From Burkholderiales bacterium RIFCSPLOWO2_12_FULL_61_40 (GTDB taxonomy: Bacteria > Pseudomonadota > Gammaproteobacteria > Burkholderiales > Burkholderiaceae_C): a DNA stretch of 64,000 nucleotides. Made by a program: the position numbers and the translations under genes. The notes below the pieces were generated by a model. It searched no databases and had not been told where the DNA came from. It saw only the letters and a program-made list of their open reading frames with translations. Shown in pieces: positions 52,509-61,636 of this stretch. Within the stretch, counting starts at the first letter, position 1. Each line of letters begins with the position of its first letter. The stretch is from positions 1-64,000 of the forward strand of contig MESI01000085.1 in NCBI GenBank assembly GCA_001770935.1, given 5' to 3'.

Positions 52509-53924
52509 ATGGACCAATCCAACCGTTACGCCGATTTGAGCCTCACCGAGGCCGAACTCATCAAAAATGGCCAACACATCCTGGTGGCCTACCACATGCG
52601 GCCCAAGCCGGGCCACGGCTACCTGGAGGCCGCCGCCCACTTTGCCGCCGAATCCTCCACCGGCACCAATGTCGATGTCTGCACCACCGACGACTTCACC
52701 CGAGGGGTGGACGCGCTGGTGTACTACATCAACGAGGCCACCGAGGACATGCGCATTGCCTACCCGCTGGACCTGTTTGACCGCAACGTCACCGACGGCC
52801 GCTTCATGCTGGTGTCTTTCTTGACGCTGGTGATCGGCAACAACCAGGGCATGGGCGACATTGCGCACGGCAAGATGATCGACTTCTATGTGCCGGAGCG
52901 TGCCATCCAGATGTTTGACGGCCCTTCCAAGGACATTTCAGACCTGTGGCGCATTCTGGGGCGCCCGGTCAAGGACGGCGGCTTCATCGTGGGCACCATC
53001 ATCAAGCCCAAGCTGGGCCTGCGCCCCGAGCCTTTTGCCCAGGCGGCCTACCAGTTCTGGCTGGGTGGCGACTTCATCAAAAACGACGAACCGCAGGGCA
53101 ACCAGGTCTTCGCACCGCTCAAGAAAACCATCCCCCTGGTCTACGACGCCCTGAAGCGCGCCCAGGACGAGACCGGCCAGGCCAAGCTGTTTTCCATGAA
53201 CATCACCGCCGACGACCATTACGAAATGCTGGCCCGGGCTGACTTTGCGCTGGAAACCTTTGGCCCCGATGCGGACAAACTGGCCTTTTTAGTGGACGGC
53301 TTCGTGGGCGGCCCCGGCATGGTCACCACCGCCCGACGCCAGTACCCCAACCAGTACCTGCACTACCACCGCGCCGGCCACGGCATGGTCACCTCGCCGT
53401 CGGCCAAACGCGGCTACACCGCCTTTGTGCTGGCCAAGATGAGCCGCCTGCAAGGGGCGTCGGGCATCCACGTCGGCACCATGGGCTACGGCAAGATGGA
53501 AGGCGAAGGTGACGACCGCATGATTGCCTACATGATCGAGCGCGACGAATGCCAGGGTCCGATCTACTTTCAGAAGTGGTACGGCATGAAACCCACCACA
53601 CCCATCGTCTCCGGCGGCATGAACGCCCTGCGCCTGCCGGGCTTCTTCCAGAACCTGGGCCACGGCAATGTGGTCAACACCGCCGGTGGCGGCGCCTATG
53701 GCCACCTGGACAGCCCGGCGGCGGGCGCCATTTCGCTGCGCCAGTCCTACGAGTGCTGGAAATCCGGCGCCGACCCGGTGGAATTTGCCAAGGAGCACCG
53801 CGAGTTTGCCCGGGCTTTTGAGTCCTTCCCGGGCGATGCCGACCGTTTGTTCCCCGGCTGGCGTCAAAAACTGGGGCTGGAGCCCAAAGTGGCGCGCCCA
53901 GCCAGGGTCATGGAGTCGATTTAA
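52509..53924 (+). CDS. cbbM: Form II RuBisCO large subunit
   Basis: 471 residues, about 460-470 being usual for form II. Active-site lysine in IIKPKLGL, carbamylation lysine in [10 protein letters not shown], His/Arg in [10 protein letters not shown], and the mobile-loop lysine in [14 protein letters not shown] are all present. It fixes CO2 onto RuBP. Separate from the leftward operon, with its own promoter. Its stop overlaps the convergent DHH relic by 17 bp. Confidence 0.97.
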
Positions 53925-54128
53925 ACTGCCCGCCCAGCAGTTCGGGCAAGCGGTCGGCCTCTATCTTGAAGCCGCAGGCCTGCGCGTGCCCGCCGCCGCG
54001 CATGCTTTCGGCCAACCGGCCGAATTTTTCATCCATGGCACGGCCCCGCTCCATAAAACCAGCCAGCTGCTCGGGGCTGAATTCGGCAATCTCCTTCCAG
54101 CGCGCAAGCTCACAGGGCTCCATGTCCA
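53908..54128 (-). pseudogene. Gutted copy of the DHH phosphoesterase gene
   Basis: Translates to DMEPCELARWKEIAEFSPEQ, AMDEKFGRLAES and MRGGGHAQACGFKIEADRLP, nearly identical to the intact gene at 60716-61636. It lacks the first 160 or so residues, including the DHH motif, and about 69 codons internally between short CGGCCA repeats. Homology stops near 54128. Confidence 0.85.
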
Positions 54129-54296
54129 ACTCCGGAGCAAAGGGTCAGGCTCCAATCAGCACCAGGTTGAACACTGCCCGTAGGACGAGCGAGGCACAGC
54201 CGACTGTGCATTGCAGCGTTTCATCGGGCGCGTACAGGTGCTGCTTTTTGAAGAGCGCGAGACCGAAAGCTATACCTCAGTTGGACGCGTTGAGGA

Positions 54297-54590
54297 TCAA
54301 GCAGCCAACTCCACCCGAACCCGTTTTCCCAACGCGGCAGCAGCACTGGCCAGCGTTGTCAACGTCAGGCTGGTATCGGTGGCATCGAGCAAGCGATTCA
54401 GCGCCGCACGGCTGGTATGCATCTTGGTGGCCATGGCCGTCTTGGAAAGCTTTTGCACTTTCATTTCCTGCTCAATCTGCCAGGCAATGACCCGCTTCAT
54501 AGCCGTCGCTGTCGCGTCTTCCAATAAAGCTTCCTCAGCCAGAAAATCATCGAAATTACTGCCGATGTGTTTATTCTCCATAGTCTTCAC
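54297..54590 (-). CDS. XRE-family antitoxin
   Basis: 97 residues (or 94 from the ATG at 54581). LSKTAMATKMHTSRAALNRL is the helix-turn-helix; LTTLASAAAALGKRVRVEL is the conserved end of HigA-like antitoxins. It overlaps the toxin stop by 4 bp. It lies between the two halves of the duplicated cbbM-DHH segment. Confidence 0.85.
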   Translation of the reverse strand: MKTMENKHIGSNFDDFLAEEALLEDATATAMKRVIAWQIEQEMKVQKLSKTAMATKMHTSRAALNRLLDATDTSLTLTTLASAAAALGKRVRVELAA

Positions 54591-54937
54591 TCCTTCACTT
54601 GTTTCAGTCGGTTTTTCGCGAGCGCGAGGTCATCCGCCGGGGTGCTGCTGGATTTTTTGATGAACCCATGGAGCAGCACCATGGCGTCCCCGTGGACGGT
54701 GAATAAAATACGGGCAATTCGAGTCTGAAGGTGGATACGCACCTCCCAAAGATCCTTGCCCATTTTGCGTACCAAAGGCATTCCCAATGGCCAGCCGAAT
54801 TGCACGGTTTTGATGTCTTCGCCGATCGCCTTCCGCTCGATGGCTGGCAAATCTTTCAGCCAGTCTCGCACGGGCTCATTGCCCGACTCGGATTTGAAAA
54901 AGAAAACGAGAAGGACTGGATGAGTTGGGCTAACCAT
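54587..54937 (-). CDS. HigB-like toxin (RelE superfamily, DUF891/gp49)
   Basis: 116 residues from MVSPTHPVLLVFFFKSESGN. VRDWLKDLPAIERKAIGEDI, GWPLGMPLVRKMGKDLWEVR, RILFTVHGDAMVLLHGFIKK and LALAKNRLKQVKE cover the complete fold, so this toxin looks intact, unlike the relic at 3012. A perfect 30-bp palindrome lies 3 bp upstream. Confidence 0.88.
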   Translation of the reverse strand: MVSPTHPVLLVFFFKSESGNEPVRDWLKDLPAIERKAIGEDIKTVQFGWPLGMPLVRKMGKDLWEVRIHLQTRIARILFTVHGDAMVLLHGFIKKSSSTPADDLALAKNRLKQVKE

Positions 54938-54939
54938 GA

Positions 54940-54969
54940 CGCAACGGTACCAAATTTGGTACCGTTGCG
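54940..54969 (-). promoter_or_regulatory. 30-bp perfect palindromic operator
   Basis: Arms of 15 bp (left arm CGCAACGGTACCAAA) meet without a spacer; the right arm is the exact complement. It starts 3 bp before the toxin ATG and would be occupied by the XRE antitoxin. Confidence 0.75.
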
Positions 54970-55049
54970 CAAGTCTGTGATTTGCAAATAATGTGCGTCG
55001 GCGGCGATCCAATGCATTGCATTGCTAGTCGGACCTGTTTCAAACGTCG

Positions 55050-55646
55050 TTACCACTACGAAATGCTGGCCCGGGCCGACTTTGCGCTGGAAACCTTTGG
55101 CCCCGATGCGGACAAACTGGCGTTTTTGGTGGATGGCTTTGTGGGCGGCCCCGGCATGGTCACCTCGCCGTCTGCCAAGCGCGGCTACACCGCCTTTGTG
55201 CTGGCCAAGATGAGCCGCCTGCAGGGGGCCTCAGGCATCCATGTGGGCACCATGGGCTACGGCAAGATGGAAGGTGAAGGCGACGACCGCATGATTGCCT
55301 ACATGATCGAGCGCGACGAATGCCAGGGTCCGATTTACTTCCAGAAGTGGTACGGCATGAAGCCCACCACCCCCATCATCTCGGGCGGCATGAACGCACT
55401 GCGCCTGCCGGGCTTCTTCCAGAACCTGGGCCACGGCAATGTGGTCAACACTGCGGGTGGCGGTGCCTATGGCCACCTGGACAGCCCGGCGGCGGGCGCG
55501 ATTTCGCTGCGCCAGTCCTACGAATGCTGGAAATCCGGCGCCGACCCGGTGGCGTTTGCCAAAGAGCACCGCGAGTTTGCCCGTGCCTTTGAGTCCTTCC
55601 CGGGTGATGCCGACCGGTTATTTCCTGGCTGGCGTCAAAAACTGGG
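55050..55646 (+). pseudogene. Truncated duplicate of cbbM
   Basis: Near-identical to 53209-53871 of the intact gene, from [20 protein letters not shown] to [12 protein letters not shown]. The first 235 or so codons are missing. An internal 66-bp deletion between 12-bp direct repeats (GGCATGGTCACC) removes 22 codons that include the catalytic HYHRAGHG. The C-terminal codons are replaced at 55647. It cannot form an active enzyme. Confidence 0.9.
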
Positions 55647-55676
55647 AGCCGTAGCAGTAGCACCCCAGGCACTTCG

Positions 55677-56549
55677 TCACACGTCCTTGTGCGTGTAGTA
55701 CCACAGGCCTGCGTTGAAGGCCAAAGCACCAATGATATTTCCGATGGTCACAGGGATCTGGTTCCAGATCCACCAATCATATAAAGAGACATTTGCCCCC
55801 GACAGTATGCCGACTGGAAAAACGAACATATTGACGACCGTATGCTCAAATCCGAGCGCAAAAAAGGTTGATAAAGGCAGCCATATCAGCATGACCTTTC
55901 CCGGAACACTGCGTGAGGCCTTGGCCATGATTGGTGCCAGACTGACCAGCCAATTGCACAGAACCCCCATCCCGACGGCGGCCAGCCAGCCAAGGTGCCC
56001 GTATTCCAGGTAAGAAGCCTTCTTTTCGGCCAGATGGGCCAATGTGATCAGCACGCCCGAAGGGGCGGTGGTCCCTCCTTTGGTCAGGGAGAACCAAAAT
56101 AGCCAAGCAAAGAACAGCCCTCCCGCCAGATTGCCCAACAGGGTCCATGTCCAGTTTCGGACCACGCGCCAAGGCTTGATACGCCCCGCATACATCCCAA
56201 TGGGCATCACGGAAAAACTACCCGTGGCCATCTCCAGCCCCAAGGTCGCCAGCATGATGTAGCCGACCGGAAATATCAACCCCGCAGCTGCGGTGGGCCA
56301 GCCTTGGGTGGCCAGCAAGGCGGATAGCGCGGCAGCGTAGGCCAAGAACGGGGTGCACAGAAAACCTCGCACCAAGAGGCGGGAAATGGGAAACTTATCT
56401 TTCTTGACCGCATCTTCAACAATCTCCCAACCGATTTGTGCGGGCGATACTGCGTCAGTGATCGTCAAAGTGGCCGAGAGTGCGGCAAGACTCTCAACAC
56501 GCAAATTGTTGCTCGCCGAGTCTGTGGAGGGATAAAACGTGTGGCTCAT
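55677..56549 (-). CDS. Formate/nitrite (FNT) family channel
   Basis: 290 residues, six membrane helices after a longer than usual N-terminal tail. [14 protein letters not shown] is the first re-entrant loop and [20 protein letters not shown] holds the FNT histidine. Family substrates are small monovalent anions: formate, nitrite, hydrosulfide, lactate. AAGGA lies before this ATG. Last gene of a five-gene leftward cassette. Confidence 0.88.
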
Positions 56550-56610
56550 GGCATTGTTATCCTTGTTTTGATGGTGAAAGCTCCGGTATTGCGCAGCCAC
56601 AGATTGCGTG

Positions 56611-56952
56611 TCACTGGTCACCCCCTTCTGCAGTAGAACAATCCGCATCATCCAGAAACCGGGCACAACCGACAAACCAGAATCCAACGCCGATCAGAAT
56701 GACAACCAAAGAAACCCACCCAATGGCGACGCGCGCGGACAGCTCACCAAGCAGGTCGATCTGCTGATCTCCGTTTAGCATCACAAAGCAATACGTGACG
56801 ATACCGATCATGGAAATAATCCAACCGGAAAGTATCGTCTTGCGACCCCGCTCCAAGTCTCTGCGCAACATTTTCTTGCCGCCCCCGCTTTTAACGGAAA
56901 GATTGGAAACTTTGGCGTTGAAGTCCGAAGTCAGCGATGGTTTGTAACTCAT
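56611..56952 (-). CDS. Small two-helix membrane protein of unknown function
   Basis: 113 residues: a basic cytoplasmic N-terminus (KSGGGKKMLRRDLERGRKT), two membrane helices (about 44-62 and 76-98) and a short tail. No family is recognised. It sits between the TDT channel (11-bp gap) and the FNT channel (61-bp gap), so an accessory role to either channel is plausible. Confidence 0.65.
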   Translation of the reverse strand: MSYKPSLTSDFNAKVSNLSVKSGGGKKMLRRDLERGRKTILSGWIISMIGIVTYCFVMLNGDQQIDLLGELSARVAIGWVSLVVILIGVGFWFVGCARFLDDADCSTAEGGDQ

Positions 56953-56963
56953 GAAATATCTCC

Positions 56964-58121
56964 TCAAATAGTTTGTGAATTGACGGACACGCGAACCGTT
57001 ACAGTGCCCGCCCGTTTGCGTCCCGCCCGCTTTAGATCAGTCATTACCGCCATGACCAGTCCGAGAAAAGTGAAAAGCCAGGCGGTTAGCGCCAAACCGA
57101 TAAACAAGCGGGGAACACTGAGCAGAAAGGGCAGGTTGAAGACCTCAGCAAGCCTGTGGGTTGCAATCGTGTACATCGCCAAGGGAAACACGGCTCCCCA
57201 ATACAGCGGGTCGTACATCAGCGGAACCTTGTGATAAACATAACGCCACACCCCGAGGATTACCAGCATCGGAATCCACCAGGTGGCGGTCGCCCAAAAG
57301 AGCAGGGTGAGCCCCTTAAGAAATGGCCGCAAGGAAACCAGCAAAGGCGACTGATCGGCAATACCTACAAGCAGCGCTCCGGCAAGGGTTGAAATCGCCA
57401 TTGCGCCCATGTTGATCCAGTAGGGCGGCGTCAGATCCTGCGGATCAAAGCGGAAAAATGTGTAGCGGTAAAAAATCAGGGAGATGATCCAGATATAGAG
57501 CATTCCTCCGGCAAGCCAGAGCAAGGTCAGGCCCAGCATGGCGGCTTCGGAGTGCTCCAGTCCCGGCATGAGCGTGCAGGCAAGTACGACGAGGGATTGC
57601 GGAGCAACCACCGCCGTCAGCCAGCCGCCATTGATGCCATCTTCAAATGCCGGTTTGTTCTTGCGTATGGTGAGGGCGGTAAATATGGCATAGGTCAGCA
57701 CCAGCCACAAAGCGAAGGCGAACCACCACATAATTTGAGCGGCTGCCGCCATTTGCAACTGCACCGCAACTTGCGCCCCTAGAACAGAGGTTGCAGCGAC
57801 AGTGGTAAAAAATCCAGTCCCGCGCGAATGGTTGCCAAAGTCGTCAATGAATCGCTTTGGGTAATAGCCAAGGCGCAAGAGTGTCAGCACCCACAGTACG
57901 ACGTACGCGGCCAGATTGATCACCAGCAATGCCGCAGGCAGTGCCGGAATTTTTTCCAGTTGACAGGCGAGCCCGAGAATGCCCGTCGCCATGACCATGG
58001 CGAAATAGGCGGGCGACAGATTGATCAGCGTTTTATGAAAGAGCGCATGCACCGACGTCCCCACAACGGCCGGCGCCCCTTCCGCTTTCCTTTCCAATCG
58101 CGCATTTCTAACAATTGACAT
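56964..58121 (-). CDS. SLAC1/TehA (TDT family) anion channel
   Basis: 385 residues with ten helices. INLSPAYFAMVMATGILGLA starts helix 1; GFFTTVAATSVLGAQ, PYWINMGAMAISTLAGALL and GAVFPLAMYTIATHRLAE are TDT-family blocks. Relatives carry chloride/nitrate, malate, sulfite or tellurite. A conserved gating Phe cannot be assigned with confidence. Third gene of the cassette. Confidence 0.85.
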   Translation of the reverse strand: MSIVRNARLERKAEGAPAVVGTSVHALFHKTLINLSPAYFAMVMATGILGLACQLEKIPALPAALLVINLAAYVVLWVLTLLRLGYYPKRFIDDFGNHSRGTGFFTTVAATSVLGAQVAVQLQMAAAAQIMWWFAFALWLVLTYAIFTALTIRKNKPAFEDGINGGWLTAVVAPQSLVVLACTLMPGLEHSEAAMLGLTLLWLAGGMLYIWIISLIFYRYTFFRFDPQDLTPPYWINMGAMAISTLAGALLVGIADQSPLLVSLRPFLKGLTLLFWATATWWIPMLVILGVWRYVYHKVPLMYDPLYWGAVFPLAMYTIATHRLAEVFNLPFLLSVPRLFIGLALTAWLFTFLGLVMAVMTDLKRAGRKRAGTVTVRVSVNSQTI

Positions 58122-58224
58122 CGCCGCTCACCTCTGCATCTTGAGTTTGAAAAACTGAAGATGAGTGTGCTGCGGTGCCTGGAAATTAGGTAGCGGGCGG
58201 TGGCTGACGTGGCTATCAGCTGAT

Positions 58225-58241
58225 CCCTACAGCCTGTAGGG
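58225..58241. promoter_or_regulatory. Palindrome upstream of the TDT channel gene
   Basis: CCCTACAG-C-CTGTAGGG, perfect 8-bp arms, in the 143-bp spacer between the regulator stop and the channel start. No T-run, so an operator for the NarL-type regulator is more likely than a terminator. Confidence 0.5.
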
Positions 58242-58264
58242 GTATGACTGACAAAGGGAGGGTT

Positions 58265-58891
58265 TCAGTTCACCAGCGCGTGGCGGATGGCGTACTGCAT
58301 CAGCTCGGCGTTGGAGTCCATTCCCATCTTTTCCAGAATGCGCGCGCGATACGTGCCCACAGTCTTGGTGCTGATGTGAAGCAGCACAGAGATTTCCGTA
58401 GGAGACTTGGCCGTGGCGATGAGACGAAATACCTCAAACTCACGGCTGGACAGCGTTTCATGCGGGGCCTTTGGCCCATCACAGGCAATCAGCGAAGCCA
58501 GCCGGTCGGCAAGGTCTCCCGTAATAAAGCGACGCCCACCCATGACCGTCCGGATCGCATCCAGCAACTCCCGTGCCGCCCGCTCTTTCGTCAGAAACGC
58601 AACCGCACCATCGCGCAAGGCCCGCACGGCAAATTGATGGTCGCCAAAGCTGCTAAGAACAATGACCCGCACGGTGGGATAGGCACAGCGGATATCTGGA
58701 AGAAGATCCAGCCCGCTGCGTCCGGGAAGTGAAATATCGAGCAAAACCACATCCCAGGCCGTGCGCCGCAATTCCAGCATGGCCTCATCGCCATCGGCCG
58801 CCTCGCCGACTTCTGCGCCCAGATCTTCCATGAGAATCCGTCTCAGCCCAGCTCTCAAAATCGCATGGTCGTCAACCAACAGAATCTTCAT
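58265..58891 (-). CDS. NarL/FixJ-type response regulator
   Basis: 208 residues. Receiver: MKILLVDDHAILRAGLRRIL, phosphoacceptor in VVLLDISLPGRSG; output LuxR helix-turn-helix LSSREFEVFRLIATAKSPTE, KTVGTYRARILEKM. AAGGAAGAGG upstream favours this ATG over one 33 bp earlier. Cognate to the adjacent kinase by position. Confidence 0.92.
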   Translation of the reverse strand: MKILLVDDHAILRAGLRRILMEDLGAEVGEAADGDEAMLELRRTAWDVVLLDISLPGRSGLDLLPDIRCAYPTVRVIVLSSFGDHQFAVRALRDGAVAFLTKERAARELLDAIRTVMGGRRFITGDLADRLASLIACDGPKAPHETLSSREFEVFRLIATAKSPTEISVLLHISTKTVGTYRARILEKMGMDSNAELMQYAIRHALVN

Positions 58892-58907
58892 TTGCGCACC
58901 CTCTTCC

Positions 58908-60689
58908 TTAAGCTTGTCCAGCACTTCGGGGAATGGTGACCTGAAGTTCCGTTCCCTCTCCCGCTACGCCGGTGATATTGACCGTGCCGCCAAGGCGCCA
59001 TGCGCGCTCTCGCATTCCAAGCAGTCCGAGTGACGGGGATTGTGGCTCCATGCTGGAATCAAAGCCACGACCGTCGTCCCTGACCCACAGCACCAGTGCG
59101 TTGCCGCGACCCGACAACTGGGTCGCAACAAAAGTCGCGCCCGAGTGGCGGGCAACATTGGAAAGCGCTTCCTGGGTGATACGAAACAGCGCAGTGGATA
59201 TCTCCGGGTCCACCCTCAACTCGACACCGTCGGCAATCAGAGCGGTGCAGATTCCGGTGCGGCGCTCGAACTCGTGCAACAACCATTCGAGTCCGGCCAC
59301 CAGCCCCAGACAATCCAGCACGCCAGGGCGCAATTCCGACGATATCCGCCGCACCGAACGCACTGTCGCATCAATGCGTTCACCGATCTCGTCAATCAAC
59401 GTCAATACATTCTCTGTCTGCGCCAAGTCTGTGCCTGTTGCGACCCTGCGGCGCAATCGCTCCAGCTCCAATCGAAGCACGCTCAATTCCTGTCCAAGAT
59501 CATCGTGCAGCTCTTGCGCAATGCGTGCTGCCTCTTCCTCGCGCGCTGTCCGCAACCGGTGCGACAGGTCGCGCAAGCTTTCCTGCGCCCGCACCGCCTG
59601 TCTGTCGCGCAATTCAATCGTGTCGGCCATGGAGTTGAACGCCATCGTCAGGTCGCGAATTTCCCCACGCGGACGCGGCACGGGCGAGCGCGCGTCCAAC
59701 TCGCCTTTGCCAAAGCGACGGGTGGCGCTGGCAAGCATACGGATATCACGCAAAACCGAAAGGTCGGTAGCTATCAGCGAAGAGACAATGGCAAAAATCG
59801 CAAGCAATGCCAGCACGCCGATGTCACGGTAAAAAATATGATTGGCAAGGGCATAGACACTGGCTTCCGGCGGGCCAACGACGACCCAGACATCGCTGAT
59901 ACCTTTCAAGGGCGTGGCGACCGCGAGCCGGGAGACACCGTCGGGCGTCTCGCATCGCGTTAGCGTATTGGGGCTGCGGATCAGCTGTTTGAATCCCTTC
60001 AGGTGCTGGTTGGCACGATGGTCCAGTTCCCCACCGAGAGAGCTTGCCAGAATGGTGCCGTCGCGGTCAACGATCAGCAGCGCGCTATCGGACGGCAGGC
60101 CCGCCTGTTTTGTCAGCCGATCCAACCACGCAAGATCAAGGGCAGCGAACAATACAAGTGGCGGCTGGCCCGGCGCGCTTCGCAACGCTTTCGCCATGAT
60201 CAAAATCGGACGCTCAACGATCAGCCCCACGAGATAAGTGCCAACTGCGACTTCCTGAGACTGAAGTGCCCGCTGAAAGGCAGGAATCTTGACCATATTG
60301 ACCTCTCGCGGAGGCGGGACCACGCTGTACACAATTTTTCCGTCAAGTCCCAGCACACCAAGATTGGCGAACTGCGGGAACCCGGCGAGGATCGTCGGCA
60401 ACAGCTTCGGCAAATCGCCCAATCCATTGCCACTGGAGGCAGCCACCAGCCGGTCAAGCAAGCGATTGGCGCCGAGAACCTGGAGAGCATGCTCGCGCGA
60501 AGCAAGCTCGGCAACGTAGAGCGATTCGGTCTCTGCTTTATGCAATGCCGTATTGCGCTCGTCCGAGGCCACGTAAACCACGAAAAAAAACGCCGGCAGC
60601 GTCGCAAGACAAGCCAGCAATGTGAGTCGGCCGCGAAGCGTGGGGAATGAGAGAAACCGAATCACGGGTTGGAATCGTAAGCAAAACAA
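58908..60689 (-). CDS. Sensor histidine kinase (HisKA_3) with periplasmic sensor domain
   Basis: 593 residues. Membrane helix 1 (about 18-40), a Cache-like periplasmic domain of about 245 residues, helix 2 (about 285-310), HAMP, then RIAQELHDDLGQELSVLRLE (phospho-His) and the ATPase (ALSNVARHSGA, VRDDGRGFD, GLLGMRERA). The NarX/UhpB-type class. The P-box of nitrate sensors is not seen, so the ligand is unknown. First gene of the cassette. Confidence 0.9.
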   Translation of the reverse strand: MFCLRFQPVIRFLSFPTLRGRLTLLACLATLPAFFFVVYVASDERNTALHKAETESLYVAELASREHALQVLGANRLLDRLVAASSGNGLGDLPKLLPTILAGFPQFANLGVLGLDGKIVYSVVPPPREVNMVKIPAFQRALQSQEVAVGTYLVGLIVERPILIMAKALRSAPGQPPLVLFAALDLAWLDRLTKQAGLPSDSALLIVDRDGTILASSLGGELDHRANQHLKGFKQLIRSPNTLTRCETPDGVSRLAVATPLKGISDVWVVVGPPEASVYALANHIFYRDIGVLALLAIFAIVSSLIATDLSVLRDIRMLASATRRFGKGELDARSPVPRPRGEIRDLTMAFNSMADTIELRDRQAVRAQESLRDLSHRLRTAREEEAARIAQELHDDLGQELSVLRLELERLRRRVATGTDLAQTENVLTLIDEIGERIDATVRSVRRISSELRPGVLDCLGLVAGLEWLLHEFERRTGICTALIADGVELRVDPEISTALFRITQEALSNVARHSGATFVATQLSGRGNALVLWVRDDGRGFDSSMEPQSPSLGLLGMRERAWRLGGTVNITGVAGEGTELQVTIPRSAGQA

Positions 60690-60715
60690 GAAATACGTGC
60701 GGAGAGTTGGCTGAT

Positions 60716-61636
60716 CTACCGGACAGCTTCAAACTGCCCGCTCAACAACTCGGGCAAGCGGTCGGCCCCCATCTTGAAGCCACAGGCCTGCGCGTGCCCG
60801 CCGCCGCGCATGCTTTCGGCCAGGGGGATGCAGTTGAAGCCTGGTTGTGAGCGCAAACCGGCTTTGACGACGCCGGTTTTGTCCACACTCCACATCAGGG
60901 CAAACGTGCCGCTTTGCTTGCTCAGGATGTCACCCACCAGGCTGTGAAACACGCCGGGTGCATTGACTACCAGGCCCGCCACCCCATTGAAGGTGATGGG
61001 CCGGGCCGCTTCGGCCATGCCAGCGGCCAAGCGGCTGAATTTTTCATCCATGGCGCGGCCGCGTTCCATGAAGGTGGCCAGCTGCTCGGGGCTGAACTCG
61101 GCAATCTCCTTCCAGCGTGCAAACTCGCAGGGCTCCATGTCCAGCGCGGCCAGAAAACCAGCGCTCTCGGGGTATTGCCAGACCCAGATATCGCGGTCTT
61201 CCACAAAACGCACCAGGTCGGGCACGGGCTTTTCGCGCTGAAAAAACTCCCAGGCCAGCCGCGAGCCGGACTTCTTCATGTCGAAATGCACCACGCCACA
61301 GCGGCAGGCAAAACCTTCCAGCTTGTCCGCCGCACTTTTATGGTGGTCCAGCATCACCAGCTTGGCGGCACGCGCCTCGATGTCGCGCATGATCTCGGGC
61401 GAAAACGAGAAATCAAGAATGTAGACGGCACGCCCCTCCAGCGCTGGCAAGTCAGCCACTGATCGGATGTCACCATGGTCCAGGCCCAGAAACTCGGCTT
61501 GGCCTTCGTAAAAAAGCCAGGCGGCCAAGGCGGCAGCAAAGCCGTCCGGGCAATCGCGGCCGTGGTAAATCACCAAAGGTTGGGGATCGTCTTTTTCGGG
61601 GCCTACCAGCAGGCTTAAGGGAAGGATGGTTTTCAA
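60716..61636 (-). CDS. DHH-family phosphoesterase
   Basis: 306 residues. YHGRDCPDGFAAALAAWLFY and VMLDHHKSAADKL (DHH-like metal motif), then a DHHA1 domain with MRGGGHAQACGF. The family includes oligoribonucleases and cyclic-dinucleotide phosphodiesterases; the substrate is not assigned. Its last codons reach the cassette boundary near 60727, where the duplicated cbbM end would have stood. Confidence 0.85.
   Translation of the reverse strand: MKTILPLSLLVGPEKDDPQPLVIYHGRDCPDGFAAALAAWLFYEGQAEFLGLDHGDIRSVADLPALEGRAVYILDFSFSPEIMRDIEARAAKLVMLDHHKSAADKLEGFACRCGVVHFDMKKSGSRLAWEFFQREKPVPDLVRFVEDRDIWVWQYPESAGFLAALDMEPCEFARWKEIAEFSPEQLATFMERGRAMDEKFSRLAAGMAEAARPITFNGVAGLVVNAPGVFHSLVGDILSKQSGTFALMWSVDKTGVVKAGLRSQPGFNCIPLAESMRGGGHAQACGFKMGADRLPELLSGQFEAVR

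What the first reader, a model, noticed from the sequence alone, without database searches (positions are those of the whole stretch)
55650..60727. Two-component-controlled pair of anion channels inserted into the RuBisCO locus
Five co-directional genes (HisKA_3 kinase, NarL-type regulator, SLAC1/TDT channel, 113-residue two-helix protein, FNT channel) occupy exactly the gap between a truncated cbbM duplicate and the intact DHH gene. None of the repeat families found elsewhere occurs inside, and the GC content looks lower, so the block seems acquired. Seen: gene order, spacing and junctions. Known: FNT and TDT proteins conduct small anions. Inferred: the unit senses and moves one anion, perhaps formate, nitrite, sulfite or bicarbonate, and the small protein is a subunit. 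I know of no described system with this composition.
Basis: partly seen in the sequence, partly recalled or inferred. Interest (0 to 1): 0.82.

Follow-up and report, generated by a model that had tools for sequence, protein, structure and literature searches.

The report
Nitrate-respiration channel unit beside RuBisCO gene
Four of the five genes look like an old, mobile unit that bacteria of several phyla carry together with nitrate-respiration enzymes: a sensor pair, a plant-SLAC1-like anion channel and an unnamed two-helix membrane protein; its place next to RuBisCO looks like an accident of insertion.

Summary
The five genes are real, co-directional, and fill the stated gap, but they are not one conserved five-gene system. 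Four (dCache-like sensor kinase, NarL/GacA-type regulator, SLAC1-type channel, two-helix protein "SML") form a unit. I found SML in 14 other genomes of five phyla, always directly downstream of the channel, with kinase and regulator upstream in 12 of 14. The 15 SML+ channels are one side of a branch in an 83-row tree, and the four genes' distances correlate (0.87-0.92). FNT is in none of the other 82 loci: the "pair of channels" is local. NarG was found in all 16 genomes tested (15 with SML, one with kinase-regulator-channel only), against 39 of 299 in a less deeply scored sample of the window's phylum; some units lie beside narGHJI/narK. A YGTAGGR motif precedes the channel gene in 12 of 13 units. 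A near relative has cbbM and the DHH gene adjacent without insert, so the RuBisCO link is an insertion. Best reading: a horizontally acquired, self-regulated nitrate/nitrite channel of nitrate respiration with a probable accessory protein. Substrate, signal and SML's role are inferred. New variant of a known kind.

The parts
58908..60689 (-). sensor histidine kinase, 593 aa: dCache-like sensor, HAMP, HisKA_3, HATPase
   Evidence: 37-64% identity to nine kinases of other units
58265..58924 (-). NarL/GacA(UvrY)-type response regulator, 219 aa from its first start codon (the MKILLVDD start is 11 codons further in)
58225..58241 (.). 17-bp palindrome CCCTACAGCCTGTAGGG (7-nt arms, 3-nt spacer) in the 143-nt gap between regulator and channel; candidate operator
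   Evidence: YGTAGGR in 12 of 13 such gaps; function inferred
56964..58121 (-). SLAC1/TDT-family anion channel, 385 aa; gate Phe F312 followed by P313
   Evidence: PF03595 155.7 bits; AF2 pLDDT 86.3; Foldseek best matches SLAH/SLAC1/TehA; F312 aligned to TehA
56614..56952 (-). SML: 113-aa protein predicted as two helices; family with invariant G43, C55, G88, W92, G95 over 15 rows
   Evidence: no Pfam or NCBIfam match
55677..56549 (-). FNT-family channel, 290 aa; local addition, not part of the conserved unit
   Evidence: PF01226 200.6 bits; absent from the other 82 loci
55052..55646 (+). left border: fragment of a second cbbM, about 94% identical to the intact copy
60716..61636 (-). right border: intact DHHA1-domain gene that abuts cbbM in relative G728
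53920..54128 (-). broken duplicate of the DHH gene 3' end, after the intact cbbM

Best explanation
A horizontally acquired four-gene unit of nitrate respiration with an FNT gene beside it. Shown: kinase, regulator, SLAC1-type channel and a two-helix protein recur together across phyla and their sequences diverge in step. Inferred: the kinase senses a signal of nitrate respiration outside the inner membrane with its dCache-like domain; the regulator binds a YGTAGGR motif in front of the channel gene and switches on channel plus SML; the channel lets nitrate and/or nitrite pass along its gradient, in addition to the NarK carriers, and SML is a subunit that stabilises or gates it. The FNT, on the same strand just downstream, is probably a nitrite channel that adds to the same task. 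The place inside the RuBisCO locus is an insertion site and not a functional link.
For: SML lies directly downstream of TDT in 15 of 15 cases among 83 TDT loci; kinase and regulator upstream in 13 of those 15, the exceptions being L023, whose contig begins at the regulator, and L022, where TDT and SML precede narGHJI. SML-first searches found it, above weak hits, only in G000, G628 and G666, all beside TDT. SML+ channels are one side of a branch, 1 change against 14.0 in shuffles. Correlation of distances 0.87-0.92 between the four genes over 13 units, 0 of 2000 permutations as high. NarG at E<=1e-80 in 16 of 16 genomes (15 with SML plus L030's) against 39 of 299 of the window's phylum (caveats below). 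The unit is directly beside narGHJI and two NarK genes in G628 (NarG passes TIGR01580), in front of narGHJI in L022, beside two NarK genes in L031, and in the same 19 kb as NarG in L026 and L029. nar genes lie in the held flanks of 26 of the 80 wider TDT loci. The host has narG and a NarX/NarQ-like kinase on contig C24, with nap, narK and nor genes that I recognised by eye. YGTAGGR in 12 of 13 regulator-channel gaps against a mean of 0.5 loci in random same-length stretches, at most 4 in 2000 draws. SLAC1 fold, gate Phe invariant in 25 of 25 rows; plant S-type channels carry chloride and nitrate, and F450/P451 are gate residues of plant SLAC1 (passages of PMC3509319 and PMC10645844).
Against: No measurement of any substrate or signal. 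Eight of the 12 SML+ loci from genome contigs show no nar gene by the thresholds in the DNA held (some short contigs); L021 and L024 lie among fatty-acid or other genes. L023 has NrfD and ferredoxin genes about 3-5 kb away on the other strand, which could point to another respiration. L030 has kinase, regulator and channel without SML, and 68 of the 83 channels have none, so SML is not needed by the family at large. The kinase lacks the NarX/NarQ sensor half and is far under their NCBIfam cut-offs. The NarG control is imperfect: it covers the window's phylum only, while 9 of the 16 genomes are from other phyla; it scored at most 2 candidates per genome where one search scored all or most; the own genome is in both; G628 and G666 are one genus. 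The SML profile search likewise scored at most 11 candidates per genome. The motif was first seen by eye, in the window it is GTAGGG rather than GTAGGA, and L024 lacks it; the exhaustive 6-mer test is weaker: GTAGGA in 10 of 13 against a random best 6-mer of mean 6.9, 95th percentile 8.05, highest 10 in 500 draws.
Confidence: 0.55

Rival explanations
1. A bicarbonate/CO2-supply module of the RuBisCO locus: FNT and SLAC1-type channels feed HCO3- to form II RuBisCO, controlled by a carbon-sensing kinase.
For: Position beside cbbM; FNT best PDB match is LCIA, a Chlamydomonas low-CO2-inducible protein (its bicarbonate role seen in the listing of PMC10299783).
Against: No cbbM in the other 82 TDT loci; LCIA is also the best PDB match for the two other FNTs tested, one of them behind NarXL-like genes (121.6 and 90.3 bits); empty site in G728 shows insertion.
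Confidence: 0.07
2. A sulfite or other oxyanion or organic-anion exporter of another respiration that happens to occur in nitrate reducers; TDT relatives also move sulfite or malate (recalled).
For: TDT proteins have several known substrates (recalled); L023 has NrfD and 4Fe-4S ferredoxin genes nearby; L043 has another molybdoenzyme next to the unit; some wider TDT loci lie behind molybdoenzyme genes only weakly like NapA.
Against: 16 of 16 genomes have NarG; neighbouring nar and narK genes in several units. Only selected neighbours were scanned by family, so sulfur genes elsewhere in the flanks are not excluded.
Confidence: 0.22
3. A five-gene functional unit, with both channels and the small protein as one anion-handling complex.
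For: Co-directional order and short spacing in the window.
Against: FNT absent near the other 82 TDT loci, including all 14 other SML+ loci; FNT relatives in 45 of 369 class genomes, while the same kind of sample gave SML in 2 of 369; G628's FNT lies some 560 kb from its unit.
Confidence: 0.1

Closest known systems
NarX-NarL / NarQ-NarP nitrate two-component systems with narK-narGHJI
   Same: HisKA_3 kinase plus NarL-type regulator, next to nitrate-respiration genes in some relatives
   Different: Sensor part is dCache-like; NCBIfam cut-offs of NarX, NarQ, NarL and NarP not reached; the host has a separate NarX/NarQ-like kinase in its nar cluster
SLAC1/SLAH (plants) and TehA (bacteria) anion channels
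   Same: Fold, Pfam SLAC1 domain, gate Phe and, as in plant SLAC1, a following Pro
   Different: 13-18% identity to the solved members; no phmmer or profile hit to them in the PDB; below the NCBIfam tdt cut-off; constant small neighbour and own kinase/regulator pair
FNT channels (FocA, NirC, LCIA)
   Same: Pfam FNT domain; the [10 protein letters not shown] segment aligns with LCIA and FocA
   Different: Below the NCBIfam cut-offs of fnt, FocA, FocB and NirC; no assigned substrate

Membership tests
SLAC1/TDT anion channel family | PF03595 domain over the curated cut-off | tested here: met
   155.7 bits, cut-off 27.9
SLAC1/TDT anion channel family | SLAC1/TehA fold | tested here: met
   AF2 mean pLDDT 86.3; ranks 1-23 of 191 Foldseek matches are SLAC1, SLAH or TehA chains, 17 matches at E<=0.001
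SLAC1/TDT anion channel family | central gate phenylalanine (HiTehA F262, AtSLAC1 F450) | tested here: met
   F312 invariant in 25 of 25 rows, aligned to the E. coli TehA Phe in a MAFFT alignment of distant sequences; correspondence F262/F450 from passages of PMC10645844
SLAC1/TDT anion channel family | anion conductance | not testable with these tools
   needs electrophysiology or flux assays
NCBIfam tdt (TIGR00816) subfamily | score over curated cut-off | tested here: not met
   84.3 bits, cut-off 237.25
NarX/NarQ nitrate sensor kinases | equivalog cut-offs | tested here: not met
   79.6 of 578 and 94 of 553 bits; only the catalytic half matches
NarL/GacA-type regulators | receiver plus GerE domains | tested here: met
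   92.6 and 52.8 bits; the equivalog cut-offs of NarL (101.6 of 250) and UvrY/GacA (156.1 of 280) are not met
FNT family | PF01226 domain over cut-off | tested here: met
   200.6 bits, cut-off 34.6; NCBIfam fnt subfamily model not met, 155.2 of 232.3
FocA or NirC proper | equivalog cut-offs | tested here: not met
   113.1 of 290.1 and 48.5 of 293 bits
bicarbonate channel of LCIA type | specific similarity to LCIA | tested here: inconclusive
   best PDB hit at 85.2 bits, but also for two FNTs from other settings

The most novel reading that the evidence does not exclude
SML is an accessory subunit of a SLAC1-type channel in bacteria, and kinase, regulator, operator, channel and subunit form a self-contained, horizontally moving nitrate/nitrite conduit of nitrate respiration, a third route beside NarK carriers and FNT channels, which has spread over at least five phyla.
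Probability: 0.37. Interest if true: 0.66.

Novelty: new variant of a known kind. Interest (0 to 1): 0.52.

Why it matters
How nitrate and nitrite cross the inner membrane in respiring bacteria is usually told with NarK and NirC/FNT proteins (recalled). A SLAC1-type channel subfamily with nar genes in the held flanks of 26 of 80 loci, and a branch of it with its own sensor pair and a faithful small neighbour, would add a route and make an evolutionary link to the nitrate-conducting SLAC/SLAH channels of plants testable. An accessory subunit would also give a simple bacterial model of SLAC1 gating.

Tried and rejected
Small protein in viral contigs (11 pattern matches, none confirmed) and in plasmids (none). 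Weak family hits of the small protein (E 0.0036-0.0099; four genomes, three of the hits inside ORFs of 557-982 aa) were taken as chance. Pfam PF14710 as a NarG marker found only 7 of 16 genomes, 6 over its cut-off, and missed G628, which has a NarG; replaced by a whole-NarG query. In some searches my FNT reference was in a wrong frame, so their lack of FNT tags means nothing; repeated with the right protein. An iterated search for the small protein on long shadow ORFs ran away and was discarded; repeated on trimmed domains. Comparison of the channel with E. coli TehA by hhalign was weak (probability 32.6%, first part only); the fold comparison was clear. Rfam (gathering level) and tRNA scans of the window were empty. 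The simple sigma-70 scan found 0 promoter-like sites in 53800-61000, against 2.8 in shuffles. Bicarbonate reading rejected as above. Nine paper searches listed no paper whose title or shown abstract describes this unit; I saw listings only, apart from passages of two papers, and most subscription papers are not in that library.
Full report
Observation. The five minus-strand ORFs, their order and families are as described. They sit between a cbbM fragment (homology 55052-55646) and the DHHA1 gene (61636-60716). The intact cbbM (52509-53924) is followed by a broken 3' piece of the DHH gene and a gene pair like a toxin-antitoxin pair (Gp49 domain). The two cbbM copies are about 94% identical, and each is 92-94% identical to the cbbM of the near relative G728, where cbbM and DHH converge directly. 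The insert is therefore real relative to G728, but the duplication is not very recent, or came from a related strain. GC is lower (0.568 against 0.613), which is weak evidence because other stretches of the window are nearly as low.

The small protein. Above weak hits it was found only in the own genome of a 299-genome family sample, in own and G628 of 369 class genomes, in G628 and G666 of 53 genomes of G628's family, and, with a 15-row profile, in the own genome alone of 398 in the phylum (which scored at most 11 candidates per genome). In G628 and G666 the order kinase, regulator, SLAC1-type channel, small protein is the same as in the window, with no FNT in the stretches held.

The wider set. 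I searched these 80, the G628 and G666 loci and the window, 83 in all, for the small protein with a profile on trimmed stop-to-stop frames. It is in 15 of 83, always directly downstream of the channel. Kinase and regulator lie upstream in 13 of the 15; L023 begins at the regulator because the contig ends, and L022 has channel and small protein in front of narGHJI. L030 has kinase, regulator and channel but no small protein found. The 12 named carriers are Oxalobacteraceae UBA5157, Rhodocyclaceae STA_62, another betaproteobacterium, gamma proteobacterium HdN1, Geothrix fermentans and three other Acidobacteria, a Myxococcota MAG, two Planctomycetota MAGs and a Melainabacteria MAG. FNT was in none of the 82 others, nor was cbbM.

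One history. In a tree of 83 channels (quick method) the 15 with SML are one side of a branch (SH-aLRT 85; 1 change against a shuffled mean of 14.0). The root is not inferred, so this is not strictly shown to be a clade. The window's channel is nearest to L021 (76%), L022 and L023, all named Betaproteobacteria. Pairwise distances of the four proteins over the 13 complete units (L022 and L023 dropped) correlate at 0.87-0.92, with 0 of 2000 permutations as high. In the genus, 4 of 78 genomes had a channel relative at E<=1e-20: the own genome and three at 34-51%; G728 had none.

Link to nitrate respiration. The G628 unit lies between narGHJI plus one NarK gene and a second NarK gene; NarG passes the NCBIfam narG cut-off, 1444 of 1084 bits. 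Among the 80 loci, 26 have nar genes in the held flanks (NarG>500, NarH>300, NarI>70 or NarK>200 bits): 4 of 12 with SML, 22 of 68 without. So SML itself does not raise the rate; the wider channel subfamily carries the link. No neighbourhood control was run. At genome level a whole-NarG query hit 16 of 16 genomes (15 with SML plus L030's) and 39 of 299 in a sample of the window's phylum. The own genome is in both; only 7 of the 16 are from that phylum; and the control scored at most 2 candidates per genome, so its rate may be somewhat too low. The host has narG on contig C24, with a NarX/NarQ-like kinase and, by eye, nap, a regulator, narK and nor genes.

Regulation. A stretch of about 110-235 nt lies between regulator and channel in the 13 units measured. 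In the window it holds the palindrome CCCTACAGCCTGTAGGG (58225-58241). YGTAGGR is found in 12 of 13 such gaps (L022 and L052 left out; L024 has none), two or more times in seven of them including the window, against a mean of 0.5 loci and a maximum of 4 in 2000 draws of random same-length stretches. As I had seen the motif first, I also ranked all 6-mers: the top three are GTAGGA (10 of 13; not in the window, which has GTAGGG), CCTACA (9) and CCTACG (8), all of one motif; the best random 6-mer reached 6.9 on average, 8.05 at the 95th percentile and 10 at most in 500 draws. In nine units the layout GTAGGAC ... TCCTACG can be aligned across phyla, with substitutions in several. That the regulator binds there is inference.

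Channel structure. The AF2 model (mean pLDDT 86.3) matches SLAC1, SLAH and TehA structures at ranks 1-23 and nothing else at E<0.1. F312-P313 aligns with the TehA gate Phe and resembles F450-P451 of plant SLAC1, described as gate and helix breaker in PMC10645844 (passages). PMC3509319 (passages) says that S-type currents are carried by chloride and nitrate, and that SLAH3 prefers nitrate.

FNT. It is a true FNT-family protein by Pfam whose best solved match is LCIA (85.2 bits, then a formate channel at 69.5). LCIA is also first for an FNT that follows a NarX/NarQ-like kinase end and a NarL-like regulator in G312 (121.6 bits) and for one in G661 (90.3 bits), so it is no argument for bicarbonate. 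The G312 arrangement supports nitrite, by analogy only.

Conclusion. Four genes are a conserved, nitrate-respiration-associated unit; FNT and RuBisCO are neighbours by insertion. What is shown: association, divergence in step, fold, and a conserved motif. What is inferred: the substrate, the signal, the binding of the regulator, and SML as a subunit.

Noticed in passing
window 54297-55012: HTH/Gp49-type gene pair that looks like a toxin-antitoxin pair between the two cbbM copies, in a low-GC stretch (54130-55051 at 0.538); the cbbM 3' part and the DHH 3' end are duplicated around it.
   Followed up: partly
L052:2153-5740: In a Planctomycetia MAG the kinase and regulator of the unit fall in one open frame, so they may be fused.
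   Followed up: no
L028, L039, L040, L061, L062, L069, L087: Channels of the same subfamily without SML lie 2-4 kb behind a molybdoenzyme gene that matches NapA weakly (about 190-220 bits), in Acidobacteria, Planctomycetota and Myxococcota: another respiratory context.
   Followed up: no
L013:7719-9245: The NarK1 of G628 carries an extra segment in its middle that looks, from memory, like a biotinyl-lipoyl domain.
   Followed up: no
L134, L137, L142: FNT relatives lie beside short genes that look, from memory, like cyanate hydratase.
   Followed up: no
L131:24-3495: In G312 an FNT gene follows a NarX/NarQ-like kinase and a NarL-like regulator directly: a regulator-plus-FNT counterpart of the unit.
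   Followed up: partly
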